This document shows positions 1 to 37,601 of a stretch of DNA of 42,164 bases, piece after piece. The translations under genes and the position numbers were made by a program. This DNA comes from a virus. Position 1 is the stretch's first letter. Each line of letters begins with the position of its first letter. Location of the stretch: the IMG/VR virus record IMGVR_UViG_3300032893_000122, positions 1 through 42,164 of that record. One strand, written 5' to 3'. Under the pieces are notes generated by a model that did not search any database, was not told where the DNA came from, and saw nothing but the letters and a program-made list of their open reading frames with translations.

Positions 1-142
1 AGTAAAGGAAGAAGACGATGGGTAGGGGTTATATCTACCTAATCCGAAACTTAGTGAATGGTAAGGGCTATGTTGGTCAGACCATTAAGAAGGTAAAGTA
101 CAGATTCAGAGCACACATATGGGATGCACAGTGTGGTAGTAA
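1..142. repeat. Terminal repeat, left copy
   Basis: This segment is repeated at 42023-42164 with a single difference, C at 16 versus T at 42038. The repeat means the contig closes on itself, as a circularly permuted or terminally redundant phage genome or an assembler overlap. The difference turns GAC into GAT (Asp) near the end of the upstream gene, so it is synonymous. The break lies inside a GIY-YIG gene and is therefore unlikely to be a physical phage end. Confidence 0.9.
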
Positions 143-596
143 TTTGGTTCTTCATAGAGCGATTCGTAAGTATGGGGAATCTAACTTTTCGATTCAAGAA
201 GTTTGCTATGCGGATGTTTTGCTGCTTGATGATTTGGAGAAACATTACATCAAGTTTTTTGGTACCTTCATTCGAGAACATGGATACAACATGACTGAAG
301 GCGGAGATGGTGGTTCTGGTCCTCGTTCCCAAGAAACCCGAGCTAAAATATCTGCTTATCAAAAGGGACGTAAGAAAGCGCCTTTAACTGCTGAACATAA
401 AGCAGCAATATCTAAGGCGACCAAAGGCAAGAAGAAACCCGCTACTGAAAAGATGCTGACTAGACTTCGTGCCTACGCTGAAACAAAAAAGGGTGTACCT
501 CGACCTAAAGAGGTTGTAACAAAAATATCAGCTTCGTTGAGGGGTAAACCATGGACAGCAGCAAGACGATTAGCTCAAGAAAGTAGGAAAAAATAA
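18..596 (+). CDS. GIY-YIG homing endonuclease with NUMOD3-type repeats
   Basis: This 192-aa protein probably cuts DNA as a freestanding homing endonuclease. The GIY motif lies in GYIYLIRN (residues 4-11) and the YIG counterpart in GYVGQT (about 18-23). Arginines follow in YRFRAH, and the likely catalytic Glu is in DLEKHYIK (about 76), before the conserved GYNMTEGG. The C-terminal half has two or three basic NUMOD3-like DNA-binding modules (SQETRAKIS, TAEHKAAIS, RPKEVVTKIS). The start overlaps the upstream gene across the contig join by 8 bp, and the stop overlaps the next ATG (TAATG). The gene sits between the terminase block and the portal, a usual place for such selfish genes. Its sequence is more AT-rich than its neighbours, which fits acquisition. 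Confidence 0.9.
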   Translation: MGRGYIYLIRNLVNGKGYVGQTIKKVKYRFRAHIWDAQCGSNLVLHRAIRKYGESNFSIQEVCYADVLLLDDLEKHYIKFFGTFIREHGYNMTEGGDGGSGPRSQETRAKISAYQKGRKKAPLTAEHKAAISKATKGKKKPATEKMLTRLRAYAETKKGVPRPKEVVTKISASLRGKPWTAARRLAQESRKK

Positions 597-8193: not shown

Positions 8194-8224
8194 CATGGTA
8201 TTATCTCTACGGGATAATACCATG
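8194..8224 (+). promoter_or_regulatory. 12-bp perfect hairpin enclosing the GIY-YIG start codon
   Basis: CATGGTATTATC (8194-8205) pairs perfectly with GATAATACCATG (8213-8224) around a 7-nt loop. The start codon of the following endonuclease gene (8222-8224) is the last triplet of the right arm, so folding would hide it. An in-frame ATG at 8195 is the left-arm mirror. Phage T4 intron endonuclease genes are known to be kept silent by stem-loops that hide their initiation region; a similar role is inferred here. Confidence 0.65.
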
Positions 8225-8869
8225 AACAACTTTTACGTTTATCAGTACCTGAGAGCCAATAGTAGTAAGCATGGAGTTGCAGGGTCGCCTTATTACATTG
8301 GAAAGGGTGTTGGTCGCAGGGCTTGGGCAAGGCATCGTAAAGTTCGACCGCCCAAGAATCAGGCACTTATTGAAATCCTTGCTAAAGACTTATCTGAAGC
8401 TGATGCTTATCAAGCTGAAATGCTTTTGATTCATCTTTACGGCAGGATCAACAAAGGAACAGGTTGTCTTTGGAATTTTACCGATGGTGGTGATGCTCCC
8501 CCTACACTAAGAGGTGACCATCACCCGATGAGTGGTAAGAAACACTCACCTGAATCCAAAGCCAAAATGGCCGCAGCCAAATTAGGACGTAAGACCGGTC
8601 CTCATAATGCTAAGTGGAATGCCAATATCGCAGCGAGTCTTACTGGATTGGTAAAATCCCCTGAAACTCGTTGCAACATTTCCCGAGCACGCAAAGGAAT
8701 TAAACCGATCCCCCGCTCATCAGAACATCGTGAGGCGATTCGTCAGGCTAAGTTAGGTGTAAGTCGTCCTGATATGGTGTCAGGTTCGGTATTACAGGTT
8801 AGGTCAGCACTTACTCGTACAGGGAGGAGGCGCGGACCATATAAAAGAAGAGAGAGAGAGACCAAATGA
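8222..8869 (+). CDS. GIY-YIG homing endonuclease, second subtype
   Basis: This 215-aa protein is a GIY-YIG nuclease of a subtype distinct from the one at 18-596. It opens FYVYQYLR and has the YIG motif in GSPYYIGKG (residues about 27-35). A basic WARHRKVRPPK segment follows, then the likely catalytic Glu in AYQAEMLLIHLYG and the conserved LWNFTDGG. The C-terminal half carries NUMOD3-like repeats (SPESKAKMAAAKLG, SPETRCNISRARKG, SSEHREAIRQAKLG) for DNA binding. It lies directly after the capsid gene and its stop overlaps the GroES-like start (ATGA). The start at 8222 is inside a hairpin; 8195 is a weaker alternative that adds nine residues. It is homologous to the protein at 12816. Confidence 0.88.
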   Translation: MNNFYVYQYLRANSSKHGVAGSPYYIGKGVGRRAWARHRKVRPPKNQALIEILAKDLSEADAYQAEMLLIHLYGRINKGTGCLWNFTDGGDAPPTLRGDHHPMSGKKHSPESKAKMAAAKLGRKTGPHNAKWNANIAASLTGLVKSPETRCNISRARKGIKPIPRSSEHREAIRQAKLGVSRPDMVSGSVLQVRSALTRTGRRRGPYKRRERETK

Positions 8870-12815: not shown

Positions 12816-13310
12816 ATGGCACATAATGCTGATTTTTACATTTACGAATATCTTCGTTCTCGTGCTTCTGAGCATGGTCCGGTTGGCTCTCCTTATTATG
12901 TGGGGAAGGGTCGTCATGGGCGTGCTTTTAATAAAGCCCATCGTGTGCGTCCTCCCAAAGATAAAGCTAACATCATTTTTGTGGCTAAAAATCTAGCCGA
13001 AGATGAGGCTTTTCAAATGGAAAAAGAATTGATTGCTTTTTATGGGAGAGTAGCTATAGGTACTGGGTGTTTACAGAATTTAACTGATGGAGGAGAGGGG
13101 CACGCTGGTCATTCCCCATCAGCGGAAACCAGAATTAAGCTTAGTAAAGCGGTGAGTCTAGCAAAAAGAGGCATAAAACAATCCCCGGAACATAGAGCAG
13201 CTTTATCCAAGGTTAGAAAGGGTTGTACCCCTTGGAATAAAGGAAAGAGTATTCCTTGGACTAAGAAGGCATACGAAGCACGCGGCTTGAGGTGTCCAAG
13301 TGAGTCATAA
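12816..13310 (+). CDS. GIY-YIG homing endonuclease, second subtype
   Basis: This 164-aa protein is a close relative of the one at 8222-8869. FYIYEYLRSRASEHGPVGSPYYVGKG carries the GIY-YIG core, AFQMEKELIAFYGR holds the likely catalytic Glu, and QNLTDGGEGHAGHS follows. It has fewer C-terminal NUMOD3-like modules (SAETRIKLSKAVSLAKRG, SPEHRAALSKVRKG) and ends with a basic NKGKSIPWTKKAYEARG. The stop overlaps the GTG start of the large tail gene. A ribosome site GAGGAA sits just downstream of the hairpin at 12758-12795. The lower GC content than neighbouring tail genes suits late acquisition. Confidence 0.88.
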   Translation: MAHNADFYIYEYLRSRASEHGPVGSPYYVGKGRHGRAFNKAHRVRPPKDKANIIFVAKNLAEDEAFQMEKELIAFYGRVAIGTGCLQNLTDGGEGHAGHSPSAETRIKLSKAVSLAKRGIKQSPEHRAALSKVRKGCTPWNKGKSIPWTKKAYEARGLRCPSES

Positions 13311-32967: not shown

Positions 32968-32995
32968 GCCTCCTAATACTAATAAATTAGTTGTC
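32968..32995 (-). promoter_or_regulatory. AT-rich dyad between array and HTH-like gene
   Basis: A short AT-rich spacer separates the pentamer array from the gene at 32967. It contains the dyad ACTAAT-AA-ATTAGT and, on the minus strand, the AGGAGG ribosome site. A promoter or operator is possible, but no clear -35 box is seen. It marks the sharp left edge of the array. Confidence 0.4.
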
Positions 32996-33707
32996 TTGAC
33001 TGACCGTGACGCGACCGCCAGACCAAACCACACCGACCAGAACATAACATGACTCAACTGGACTCGACTCGATTGCCTTGCCATACTGGACGTGACATAC
33101 CGAGACATGGCATAACGGGGCTCGACTGCCATGACCCGACAAGACTGACCGTACCGGGGCACACCGAACCCCGCCAAGACAAACCATGACCTACCGCGAC
33201 TGCCTTGACCTGACTTGACCCACCTGAACCCGACGCAACGCACCGCGACATAACTAGACGCGACAGCCATGACTAGACTCGACATGCCACGCCGTACCTA
33301 GTCTGCCTCGGCTGAACATACCGCGACTAAACGAGCCTTGACTCGACACAACAGGACAAACCCGGACGCGACTCGACTCGACTGCCAAGACTAGACCCAA
33401 CCTGACATACCGTGACCCGACTTGACTCACCGTAACTTACCGGAACATGACTGCCGTGACCCGACATAATATGACTTAACTGAACACACCGCGACTTAAC
33501 ACGACTCGACTGCCAAGCCGTGACTGAACATGGCGCGACGAAACATAACAAGCCTCGACTGCCTCGACTTGACCTGACAAACCTTGACACACCGCGACTC
33601 AACATGACAAGACGAGACACAACATGACGCGACTCGACTCAACGCGACTGCCTTATCGCGACTCAACGGAACAAGACCAGACTCGACCAGACTCACCGTG
33701 ACAAGAC
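32996..33707 (-). repeat. 712-bp pentamer array with TGCC punctuation
   Basis: Hand parsing divides this stretch without remainder into 132 pentamers and 13 tetramers. On the plus strand the units are NNRAC-like; all but two of the 132 end in C, about 95 have A at position 4, and the remainder are mostly NNACC or NNGCC. On the minus strand, along transcription of its neighbours, the unit is G-K-Y-N-N. Nine tetramers are TGCC and one AGCC. Punctuation marks start at 33071, 33124, 33198, 33262, 33301, 33380, 33449, 33508, 33557 and 33646; from 33124 on every interval is 5n+4. A 5-base period rules out coding. The array begins 28 bp from one gene and ends 4 bp from another. Confidence 0.9.
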
Positions 33708-33711
33708 TTTT

Positions 33712-34215
33712 CTATGCCGCTGCCCTTTTCGCCTTCGCTTTCAGTTTGGCTTGAAGCTGAAGCCGGAAATTCTGCGTGGCTGAAAGCAAAGAATTGTAAG
33801 CATCGCCGAGCCCGAGAGCGCAAGCATAACTTTTCGCACGGAGAATTTGATTCTCAATGCGCTTGAATTCCGCCATCAGAAAGTCAGTCTCTTTGCCTTC
33901 TTCCTTTAAGTCTTTCACTTCGACAAAGTGTGGAGCGCGGCGAGGAGCATCCGGGTGAACAACAAAGCGCGGCCTCAGGAACACGGTGTTTTCAACCGTC
34001 ACTGAAATCCGCACCGTTTTAATCAAGTGCTTTGCATGATCCAGCCAATGCCGTTCGGCGGCGGCGGCAAGGTCCCATTCAAATCCGCCCTGAGTGTGAA
34101 GGGCGCTGCGAGGATTCTTGGCTTCATCCACAACGATTTGTGGAGTCAGGAACCCATGCTTTTCTTTGAGTTTCAAGAGCACCTTTTCTACGACTTCGCG
34201 ATTCATCTTCTTCAT
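33712..34215 (-). CDS. Conserved phage protein, LTPQxVVxEA family
   Basis: This 167-aa protein starts MKKMNREVVEKVLLKLKEK with AGGAGA upstream. It has LTPQIVVDEAKNPRSALHTQ and GFEWDLAAAAERHWLDHAKH, the signature (VVeEA-p-SPLH-FeWDd-aA-xxR-xqAR-LI) of a family common in phages and often found beside the gene upstream here. Function is unknown; replication or recombination roles have been considered from neighbourhood only. The C-terminal part is basic (LQLQAKLKAKAKRAAA). The stop abuts the pentamer array. Confidence 0.7.
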   Translation of the reverse strand: MKKMNREVVEKVLLKLKEKHGFLTPQIVVDEAKNPRSALHTQGGFEWDLAAAAERHWLDHAKHLIKTVRISVTVENTVFLRPRFVVHPDAPRRAPHFVEVKDLKEEGKETDFLMAEFKRIENQILRAKSYACALGLGDAYNSLLSATQNFRLQLQAKLKAKAKRAAA

Positions 34216-34264: not shown

Positions 34265-35062
34265 TTACGCCGTAGCAGCAGATGCTTTCTCTGAACGGAA
34301 GTGGCGGCTACCCAGTTCCTGAGTATACCACGTTAGCATCTCTTCAGACTCTGCATCCCATGGTTGGGCTGCTTCCATAGCTGCGATCTGAGGTTCACGA
34401 CCGCCCTGTGCGGCGATGGTGTCCCACAGCTTTTCATCCTCGTCGCTGGAGAGGAGATGGAACTGACCGAATGTCAGCTTGCCTTTTTCCGGGCGACCAT
34501 CGCCACAGCCGACATAAAGACCAGCGGCCGATAAAAGATTGGCGATAGCCTGTGGGGTCAGAAAGGGACGAATGAAAGTGACATCAAACTCCGCCGCCCA
34601 GTTGGGAATAATGCAGCGAGTGCGAATGTCAGGCGTATGATTCATGTCGCTTGACCGAACCACAGCCATGTAAAGTGCAGGGATGCCAAAAATGCCAACG
34701 TGGCGTCCTTGCACGTAGCATAGCCGTCCGATCTGCGCCTTCTTTGTTCCCGGCAAATCCAAAGCCGCTGTCATCATCGCGCCCTTGAAAGCCGTCGCGT
34801 CGATCCCCAGCAGAGTCGGACCGTCAGGAAGCTGAGTGGCAGATGCACGGAACTCAGCCACCGGATCGTGCTTGAGGCTGGTCTGCTTCTGCGCGGCGTT
34901 CATCCGCCCGGTAGGCATCAGTAATTGATGCTTTGCTTTTTCGGACATCTTGTTCAGAATGATCGGCGAATCACCGAGCACCTTAATGTGGATACTTCCA
35001 GTTTGCACCGTTGCCACCTGAATTTCCGGTGACTCCACGGTCTTGCTCTTTTGTCCTGCCAT
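34265..35062 (-). CDS. Conserved phage protein, SPIILNKMSEKAK family
   Basis: This 265-aa protein starts at 35062 with AGGAGA upstream. Motifs include IKVLGDSPIILNKMSEKAKH (residues about 27-46), LLGIDATAFKGAMMTAALDL (about 85), EFDVTFIRPFLTPQAIANLL and the Gly-rich GLYVGCGDGRPEKGKLTFGQF (about 185-205). This pattern defines a family frequent in phages of Proteobacteria, Actinobacteria and others, lacking a proven role; the Gly-rich loop and pairing with the downstream gene suggest a nucleic-acid function. It is the second gene of the minus block. Confidence 0.75.
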   Translation of the reverse strand: MAGQKSKTVESPEIQVATVQTGSIHIKVLGDSPIILNKMSEKAKHQLLMPTGRMNAAQKQTSLKHDPVAEFRASATQLPDGPTLLGIDATAFKGAMMTAALDLPGTKKAQIGRLCYVQGRHVGIFGIPALYMAVVRSSDMNHTPDIRTRCIIPNWAAEFDVTFIRPFLTPQAIANLLSAAGLYVGCGDGRPEKGKLTFGQFHLLSSDEDEKLWDTIAAQGGREPQIAAMEAAQPWDAESEEMLTWYTQELGSRHFRSEKASAATA

Positions 35063-36133: not shown

Positions 36134-36838
36134 ATGTCCCGTAAAATCAACCCCGATTCTTTACCATGGTTTCCATTCTATGCGGCGGAGTGGAAATACT
36201 CCGCAACTGTCATGAAGATGACCCGTGCTGTATGCCTTCAGCACGAGTGCTGTACATGTTCTGTATGCCTTCAGCACGAGTGCTGTACATGTTCTGTATG
36301 CCTTCAGTACGAGTACAGCACATATTACTTTCCCGAGCTATTGAAATTCTCATTAACATTGGGAAAAAATGGGTCTCCCGCGCCTATAGATAAGATAAGA
36401 AGAAAAGAGATAAAAAGAGAAAATAACTACGTAGTAGCTAATTCTAACTCAACGGGAGAAAATGATCCTGAAAAAGCAGAGGAAAAGGACGAATCCCAAC
36501 CGGAGAGTGCTTGGGTTAAACTCCCCGCCCCGGCGTCTGATGAGATGGAATTTCTCGACGTACCCGACAGTCATCCGTTCAGCTTGGCTCGGTCTAAACA
36601 AGAGCCTGTTGAGGAGCCCGATCCTCTGGATGATCCCTCGCCCATCAAGCCTAAGATGGTTTATAAAGCCGGAGTCGGCATGGTTCCCGCCACCACTAAG
36701 TCCCAGTCTCCCCCCGGTAGAAAGCAAACCCGCCCCTGTTCTCACCGATGTCCATCAGCCCACGAATCAAACCTCTGCGCCAGAAGGGCCTATTGCAATG
36801 GAACGGGCAGAGACGCAAAGGGCAGAGCAACCGCCTGA
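36134..36838 (+). CDS. DUF1376-like protein disrupted by tandem repeats
   Basis: This 234-aa ORF starts MSRKINPDSLPWFPFYAAEW, which matches the N-terminus of the DUF1376-like protein at 37002 (INPQQLPWFAFNVQRW). After YSATVMKMT the family core is missing; instead come copies of an 11-residue Cys-rich repeat, VCLQHECCTCS, encoded by the 33-bp repeat. An acidic, Pro-rich tail follows. From about 36750 the frame overlaps a winged-helix fragment in another frame. It is probably a degraded gene, although the frame stays open. Confidence 0.55.
   Translation: MSRKINPDSLPWFPFYAAEWKYSATVMKMTRAVCLQHECCTCSVCLQHECCTCSVCLQYEYSTYYFPELLKFSLTLGKNGSPAPIDKIRRKEIKRENNYVVANSNSTGENDPEKAEEKDESQPESAWVKLPAPASDEMEFLDVPDSHPFSLARSKQEPVEEPDPLDDPSPIKPKMVYKAGVGMVPATTKSQSPPGRKQTRPCSHRCPSAHESNLCARRAYCNGTGRDAKGRATA
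36228..36316 (+). repeat. 33-bp tandem repeat, 2.7 copies
   Basis: Two identical 33-bp units (36228-36260, 36261-36293) and a diverged partial third (36294-36316) lie in tandem. Each unit contains the hairpin CAGCAC-GA-GTGCTG; in the third copy this dyad is altered. The length is a multiple of both 3 and 11, so it keeps frame and helical phase. It may be a protein-binding array or simple expansion. Confidence 0.85.
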
Positions 36839-36936
36839 TGCGTGTATGGGAGTGTGTTCCCGGTACAGAGCATCTTGACCCAGCCGAAGTGACGGCGTAT
36901 ATTGAGGTTGAGGACGTCAAGTTGAGGCTGGTTTAG
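36748..36936 (+). pseudogene. Winged-helix fragment (paralogue of 35693 gene)
   Basis: The 62-aa frame reads SISPRIKPLRQKGLLQWNGQ and then RLMRVWECV, closely matching the C-terminal winged helix of the 35693 protein (SISPRFQPLYQKGLIELTGE; AMQVWRCVV). The N-terminal two thirds are missing. An extra tail, EVEDVKLRLV, is encoded by the start of a pentamer array. It is followed by a second DUF1376-like gene, so the two-gene cassette seems duplicated and eroded. Confidence 0.65.
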
Positions 36937-36981
36937 TCTCGTTAGGTCAAGTTATGTCACGGTGTGGTTCAGTTCGGTCAA
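36916..36981 (+). repeat. Small pentamer array (GTYNN grammar)
   Basis: Thirteen successive pentamers, interrupted by one extra base at 36966, begin with G and mostly follow G-T-C/T-N-N (such as GTCTC, GTTAG, GTCAA, GTTAT, GTCAC) or G-G-C/T (GGCTG, GGTGT). This is the grammar of the large array read on its minus strand, here on the plus strand. It runs from the 3' end of a coding frame to 20 bp before the next gene. Confidence 0.65.
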
Positions 36982-37412: not shown

Positions 37413-37513
37413 CGCATCCAAATCGCATCCAAATCTCTCTGACCATGCTCTGACCATGCTCTGACCATGCTCTGACCATGCTCTGACCATGCTCTGACCA
37501 TGCTCTGACCATG
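37413..37513 (+). repeat. Nine 11-bp iterons
   Basis: Two copies of CGCATCCAAAT (37413-37434) are followed, after 2 bp, by seven perfect copies of CTCTGACCATG (37437-37513). An 11-bp period places every copy on nearly the same face of DNA. Next comes an A-rich run. Such iterons are typical of replication origins, partition sites or multi-operator arrays. Minus-strand frames through them are by-products of the repeat. Confidence 0.9.
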
Positions 37514-37561
37514 CAAAAAAATGCCCCTTAAGTCGTTTAGAATCAACACGGAATTTTACAC

Positions 37562-37601
37562 ATGACATGACATGATATGATATAACAGTACATGACATGT
37601 T
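37562..37601. repeat. Short ATGAC-type pentamer array
   Basis: Eight pentamers in strict phase (ATGAC, ATGAC, ATGAT, ATGAT, ATAAC, AGTAC, ATGAC, ATGTT) follow the same NNRAY layout as the large array's plus strand. It lies between the iterons and the bidirectional terminator. The rest of the 37398-37770 gap shows no gene; a weak TTGTAG-n17-TTTTAA promoter-like pair occurs after the array. Confidence 0.65.

What the first reader, a model, noticed from the sequence alone, without database searches (positions are those of the whole stretch)
32996..33707. Strictly phased pentamer array between two phage genes
Seen directly: 712 bp resolve by hand into 132 pentamers and 13 tetramers with nothing left over. 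All but two pentamers end in C (start with G on the minus strand), positions 2-3 are K and Y, and positions 4-5 are free. Ordinary sequence does not hold a 5-base frame for 700 bp, and a 5-base period cannot be coding. Since the two free bases vary widely, the array is not simple slippage of one unit; the frame is kept while the unit content diverges. Possible roles (inference): a filament-forming DNA-binding protein reading every half helical turn; an RNA scaffold of G-K-Y-N-N units made in the direction of the operon; or, on the opposite strand, a C-rich, G-poor Rho-loading region. I know no described phage element of this form.
Basis: seen in the sequence. Interest (0 to 1): 0.95.

Follow-up and report, generated by a model that had tools for sequence, protein, structure and literature searches.

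The report
Phage RNA-guide array (VIPR system)
The odd five-letter rhythm is a string of about ten phage-encoded guide RNAs that, with the protein encoded just upstream, most likely bind and silence DNA of rival viruses; this kind of system (VIPR) was first described in a 2026 preprint, and this is another member of it.

Summary
Positions 32995-33707 hold 132 pentamers and 13 tetramers in strict 5-nt phase; on the minus strand, the operon's sense strand, the unit is G-K-Y-N-N. A second assembly carries the identical array. The feature is not isolated. Searching by array and searching by protein independently lead to the same two-gene cassette: a ~200-270 aa RAMP/Cas7-fold protein (phrog_4652; window 34265-35062) and a small partner (33712-34215). 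Of 160 loci fetched only by window-like or SUSP-like versions of that protein, 153 carry GKYNN arrays, on the protein's sense strand 278 times to 2. The protein matches PDB 36pp, 'SUSP1 Vipr protein' (E=1.5e-51). PMC13142463 (bioRxiv 2026) describes this as VIPR: vrRNAs of GGY/NN repeats whose NN letters pair with DNA, skipping one target base per unit, to repress competing phages. The window is therefore a VIPR locus, a new member of a known kind. It differs from SUSP1 in using a mainly GUC/GUU core, ~10 guides joined head to tail with GGCA|GTC tetramers between them, and an unrelated partner protein. The NN letters have the composition of codon positions 1-2 on the sense strand (bootstrap 1990/2000), which fits a skipped wobble base and DNA targets. 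No target was proven; one guide resembles an integrase motif.

The parts
32995..33707 (-). vrRNA array: 132 pentamers G-K-Y-N-N and 13 tetramers, in the sense of the operon
33649..33707 (-). guide module 1 (11 pentamers + GGCA)
   Evidence: module limits at tetramers are inferred
33560..33648 (-). guide module 2 (17 + GGCA)
33511..33559 (-). guide module 3 (9 + GGCA)
33452..33510 (-). guide module 4 (11 + GGCA); NN letters read as codon positions 1-2 give [DE]VKAV[QH][KN][IM][IM]G, like a tyrosine-integrase motif
   Evidence: suggestive only
33383..33451 (-). guide module 5 (13 + GGCA)
33304..33382 (-). guide module 6 (15 + GGCA)
33265..33303 (-). guide module 7 (7 + GGCT)
33201..33264 (-). 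guide module 8 (12 + GGCA)
33127..33200 (-). guide module 9 (14 + GGCA)
32995..33126 (-). less regular 3' part of the array (further modules, irregular tetramers)
34265..35062 (-). vipr gene: RAMP/Cas7-fold protein, phrog_4652 (265 aa; start ATG after AAAAGGAG)
33712..34215 (-). vap-like partner gene, phrog_15946 (167 aa), same strand as vipr and directly downstream; no solved fold matches
36916..36979 (+). short extra array of about 13 GKYNN units on the opposite strand, 1.9 kb from vipr

Best explanation
This is a VIPR (Viral Interference Programmable Repeat) locus of an uncultivated tailed phage. The operon encodes Vipr (34265-35062), a small partner (33712-34215), and then about ten guide RNAs joined head to tail (33707-32995). 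Vipr subunits, with a Cas7-like RAMP fold, line up on the transcript, each gripping one G-K-Y triplet and presenting the two following bases. The NN pairs jointly base-pair with double-stranded DNA with one skipped target base per unit, so a guide reads NNxNNxNNx, where x tends to be the codon wobble base. Bound complexes would block transcription of genes of competing phages or prophages. Tetramers GGC[A/T/G], usually followed by GTC, most likely separate one guide from the next. Shown here: array, gene cassette, family membership, fold, strand bias, codon-like NN composition. Inferred from the SUSP1 work: RNP formation, skip rule, DNA binding and repression. Inferred only: guide borders and processing in this clade.
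For: Array-first search: 32 of 43 loci with degenerate pentamer arrays carry a Vipr homologue in the held DNA, against 0 of 69 loci with simple pentamer repeats (Fisher p=5e-19). Protein-first search with the window-like and SUSP-like groups: 153 of 160 loci carry GKYNN arrays, 278 of 280 arrays on the vipr sense strand, 0 of 62 in shuffles; lag-5 peaks in 89% of loci against 1-4% at lags 4, 7 and 8. All members tested hit phrog_4652. Fold model pLDDT 94.6; best PDB matches are Csm/Cmr/type VII Cas7-like subunits at E about 1e-5. Profile hit to PDB 36pp_D 'SUSP1 Vipr protein', E=1.5e-51. Mechanism in PMC13142463. In window-like loci tetramers are spaced mostly 9-12 units apart, within the 9-16 repeats reported per vrRNA. 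NN composition fits codon positions 1-2 on the sense strand best of six phases (21.6 bits, next 4.3; bootstrap 1990/2000). In four close pairs of arrays NN positions differ more than core positions (odds ratio 3.6, p=0.0014).
Against: Vipr identity to the SUSP2 copy is low (33% over 49 aa in the aligned part), the partner is unrelated to the SUSP2 partner, and the core is mostly GUC/GUU, not GGY. No conserved 3' tail like that of SUSP1 vrRNAs was identified. No target was established: 3.2 Mb of carrier loci gave no excess for the 1-nt skip, five mycobacteriophages and the window itself gave nothing, and four collection scans gave one suggestive hit. 32 of 65 loci of the third protein group lack a GKY array, many of them having 5-nt arrays with other cores. 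No expression data.
Confidence: 0.93

Rival explanations
1. The array is an RNA decoy or scaffold: Vipr coats it, but the NN letters carry no target information in this clade.
For: Core is conserved and NN variable; no target proven for the window.
Against: NN letters have the composition of codon positions 1-2 in sense, beyond their own base composition (11 of 2000 permutations); related SUSP1 guides are shown to be targeting in PMC13142463.
Confidence: 0.05
2. TRAP-like regulation: an oligomeric protein wraps the array as mRNA leader to control translation or termination of the next gene (TRAP binds 11 (G/U)AGNN repeats; my own knowledge).
For: Same unit size (3 read + 2 free), about 11 units per module, and the array ends about 30 nt before the next start codon, ahead of AGGAGG.
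Against: The cassette protein has a RAMP fold and is 'Vipr' by sequence; arrays lie both up- and downstream of vipr.
Confidence: 0.02
3. Slippage-made low-complexity DNA or an assembly artefact.
For: Simple pentamer repeats are common in the same scan (69 loci).
Against: NN entropy 3.7 of 4 bits, identical array in a second record, association with one protein family and one strand.
Confidence: 0.01

Closest known systems
VIPR of Escherichia phage SUSP1 (PMC13142463, PDB 36pp) and its relative SUSP2
   Same: RAMP-fold Vipr, small partner gene, pentamer guides with 3 fixed and 2 variable bases in the sense of the operon
   Different: SUSP2 has four separate arrays of about 10-15 GGY units near the cassette; the window has one 713-bp run of about ten modules joined by tetramers, a mostly GUC/GUU core, an unrelated partner protein and a longer Vipr with extra C-terminal helices
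VIPR-type loci of Mycobacterium phage Saal (gp51/gp52) and Gordonia phage UmaThurman (gp39)
   Same: Found with the window's Vipr as query; tetramer-separated GGCNN arrays next to the vipr gene; genes annotated as hypothetical
   Different: Core mostly GGC/GGT; array upstream of vipr in Saal
Type III / type VII CRISPR Cas7-like RAMPs (Csm3, Csm5, Cmr)
   Same: Fold; these oligomerise on guide RNA (established knowledge)
   Different: Every sixth base is flipped out of an otherwise contiguous guide there (established knowledge); here a 5-nt unit with a gapped guide; no CRISPR array or cas genes seen in the window
TRAP (trp RNA-binding attenuation protein)
   Same: Reads triplets spaced by two free bases, about 11 per site (my own knowledge)
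   Different: Unrelated protein, KAG core, free bases carry no target information

Membership tests
VIPR system | Vipr protein: RAMP homologue of the Vipr family | tested here: met
   A6 profile (window first) hits 36pp_D SUSP1 Vipr, E=1.5e-51; Cas7-like fold; phrog_4652
VIPR system | vrRNA region of tandem pentamers alternating GGY and NN, or a related consensus | tested here: met
   GKYNN, cores GTC 73, GTT 30, GGT 24, GGC 9 of 136; a related consensus rather than strict GGY
VIPR system | Minimal locus: vipr plus vap gene, long intergenic regions, no cas genes | tested here: met
VIPR system | 9-16 repeats per vrRNA | tested here: met
   Nine full modules have 8-18 units, seven of them 10-16; spacing in relatives peaks at 10-11; limits inferred from tetramers
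VIPR system | Structured invariant 3' tail on the vrRNA | tested here: inconclusive
   No clear tail seen after the window array by eye; described for the SUSP1 clade
VIPR system | vrRNA transcribed and bound by Vipr | not testable with these tools
   needs small-RNA sequencing and pull-down
VIPR system | DNA target recognised by NN letters with a 1-nt skip | tested here: inconclusive
   Codon-position 1-2 composition supports it; no target proven
VIPR type II (SUSP1 / P. fulva clades) | Vipr and vap of the type II clade | tested here: not met
   Distant from the SUSP2 Vipr, partner unrelated to the SUSP2 partner; type number not assigned here
CRISPR-Cas class 1 | CRISPR repeats and other cas genes | tested here: not met
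   No CRISPR-like repeat among the tandem repeats; no PADLOC hits for the four operon proteins; other window genes not scanned against PADLOC
TRAP | TRAP/TrpBP protein with KAG repeats | tested here: not met
   Core is GKY; no TrpBP hit among the proteins scanned

The most novel reading that the evidence does not exclude
The window's clade is a mechanistic variant of VIPR: one long transcript of about ten guides in which the tetramer GGC[A] + GTC is the punctuation that starts and stops Vipr filaments (or shifts the pairing register), so that one RNA carries a library of guides; and the sense-only, codon-phased NN letters mean guides are derived from rivals' coding strands.
Probability: 0.25. 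Interest if true: 0.7.

Novelty: new member of a known kind. Interest (0 to 1): 0.55.

Why it matters
VIPR is a newly described, pre-CRISPR style of RNA-guided DNA recognition. This locus, found without knowing of it, independently confirms that arrays and Vipr proteins belong together, extends the reading to a clade with a GUY-rich core and multi-guide arrays, and shows that the guides can be read as gapped codons, a simple way to predict what phages target. Mycobacterium phage Saal and Gordonia phage UmaThurman carry the same architecture, so the clade can be tested in laboratory phages.

Tried and rejected
TRAP-like ring binding was my first idea from the 3+2 unit and ~11-unit modules; dropped when the cassette protein proved a RAMP and matched Vipr. 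A duplex-DNA binding filament was considered because arrays in the first scan lie in both orientations relative to genes; in the window-like and SUSP-like groups the orientation is 278 to 2 in sense, and in the third group the core itself differs (GAC, CGC, CAC, ARY), so a sense-strand reading remains simplest. Flanking homing-endonuclease genes were considered (similar lengths) and rejected by sequence. Reversed (not complemented) sequences were a poor control, because the reversed unit still has period 5 (65 of 160); replaced by dinucleotide shuffles. Target searches: 3.2 Mb of carriers, skip 0-3: no difference. Module 2, 8-unit core in viral contigs: 24 hits, none extends. Module 6: 3 hits, none extends. 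Module 9 in genomes: 2 hits, none convincing. Module 4: one hit, 19 of 22 letters, in frame in a phage integrase gene (L381, Pfam E=2.8e-23); about 0.2-1.5 chance hits are expected for 18 letters judging from the 16-letter scans, so this is a lead only. Felix O1 genome paper: no mention of the arrays among the passages on repeats and intergenic regions. Structure of the partner: mean pLDDT 91 but pTM 0.54, no PDB match. Rfam: nothing in the window.

Full report
The observation. Window 32995-33707 is in strict five-base phase: identity at lag 5 is 0.488 against 0.19-0.23 at lags 1-4 and 6-8. It parses into 132 pentamers and 13 tetramers. On the minus strand the unit is G, then G or T, then C or T, then two nearly free bases (NN entropy 3.7 of 4 bits). 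A second record (IMGVR_UViG_3300032897_000177) holds the same 713 bases.

It is one of many. They fall into simple pentamer repeats and degenerate arrays like this one, the latter mostly filling gaps between genes and often several per phage. Genes flanking the degenerate arrays belong again and again to two families. Family A members tested all hit phrog_4652, of unknown function; in the window it is the gene at 34265-35062. Family B is the small gene next to it (33712-34215 in the window; phrog_15946); relatives of the window's B lie on the strand of A in 95 of 95 cases, mostly directly downstream.

The association holds both ways. Array first: 32 of 43 degenerate-array loci carry family A, 0 of 69 simple-repeat loci do (p=5e-19). 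Protein first: of 160 loci fetched by window-like and SUSP-like family A proteins alone, 153 carry GKYNN arrays, 278 of 280 on the sense strand of the protein gene, with none in 62 shuffled loci. A third protein group has GKY arrays in 33 of 65 loci, on either strand but one strand per phage with one exception, and many of the rest have five-base arrays with another core, such as CGCNN, CACNN or ARYNN. The step of five is kept while the triplet changes with the protein group, as expected if the protein reads the triplet.

What the protein is. The model of family A (window copy, 141 aligned sequences) has mean pLDDT 94.6. Its best solved matches are Csm, Cmr and type VII Cas7-like RAMPs (E about 1e-5 to 1e-4, TM 0.4-0.5). 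A profile search of PDB sequences gave 36pp_D, 'SUSP1 Vipr protein', E=1.5e-51. That name led to PMC13142463 (bioRxiv 2026.04.26.720920): VIPR systems pair Vipr with vrRNAs of 9-16 GGY/NN repeats; the NN letters pair with double-stranded DNA with one skipped base per unit; the complex represses transcription; natural targets are satellites and prophages; seven types exist, some with a related consensus or with staggered arrays. The window is a VIPR locus. Escherichia phage SUSP2, Mycobacterium phage Saal and Gordonia phage UmaThurman carry it too, annotated as hypothetical proteins.

What is particular here. The core is GTC or GTT in 103 of 136 units and GGY in 33 (this count includes the short second array). 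The partner is not similar to that of SUSP2. Most tetramers are GGC plus one base, nearly all followed by GTC, and they cut the run into nine full modules of 8-18 units and an irregular end. Across window-like loci tetramers are mostly GGCG or GGCA, and the spacing peaks at 10-11 units. I infer that each module is one guide. A short array of the same kind lies at 36916-36979 on the other strand.

A test of the code. If NN letters pair with coding DNA and the skipped base is the wobble base, NN should look like codon positions 1 and 2. In the window it does: log-odds 21.6 bits for positions 1-2 in sense, against 4.3 for the next of six phases; the phase wins 1990 of 2000 bootstraps, and pairing of the two letters matters beyond their composition (11 of 2000 permutations). 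In 5871 units of window-like loci the same phase is best (r=0.75); in the SUSP-like and third groups it is the best of the six codon phases but plain dinucleotide composition fits better. The codon table is the window's own genes, a proxy for unknown targets. Sense, not antisense, letters could not pair with mRNA, so this also favours DNA as target (inference). In four close pairs of arrays, NN positions differ more than core positions (20 of 210 against 9 of 319, p=0.0014).

Targets. None is proven. Module 4 read as codons gives [DE]VKAV[QH][KN][IM][IM]G; the only exact nine-unit match in IMG/VR lies in frame in a tyrosine integrase, GVKAVQKMMGH (L381). Chance can give about one such hit. Other scans were negative.

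Verdict. A genuine, well-supported VIPR locus; new member of a known kind with an unusual guide array. I found no published account other than the 2026 preprint, whose supplement I could not read; this locus or its clade may be in it.

Noticed in passing
window 37437-37514: Seven exact copies of an 11-base unit CTCTGACCATG, next to two copies of TCGCATCCAAA, just after a DUF1376-like gene.
   Followed up: no
window 37560-37599: ACATG repeat; on the minus strand it reads GTCAT GTACT GTTAT ATCAT ATCAT GTCAT GTCAT, the array's core with nearly constant NN: a simple repeat or a young/decayed guide.
   Followed up: partly
window 36228-36314: 33-bp unit repeated 2.6 times (98%), in frame inside a predicted gene (CSVCLQHECCT repeats).
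   Followed up: no
window 18-596, 8195-8869, 12816-13310: Three homing-endonuclease-like genes (one GIY-YIG + NUMOD3, two with NUMOD3) among the structural genes.
   Followed up: partly
L012, L053, L319, L094 (IMG/VR loci): Phages with four to nine separate pentamer arrays in successive intergenic gaps around the vipr cassette.
   Followed up: partly
L298, L324-L330, L338-L341, L345; L331, L342, L347; L312, L314, L323: Vipr relatives whose arrays use other triplets on the sense strand: CGC, CAC, or A[GA][TC]; a natural set for decoding which residues choose the triplet.
   Followed up: partly
L228 4279-4350: A vrRNA-like array follows directly after what looks like the 3' end of a tRNA gene.
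   Followed up: no
L004, L013, L039, L051, L060, L065, L095, L098, L099, L110, L117: Degenerate pentamer arrays without a detectable Vipr gene in the held DNA; some loci are truncated, and some arrays lie inside long reading frames and may be unrelated.
   Followed up: no
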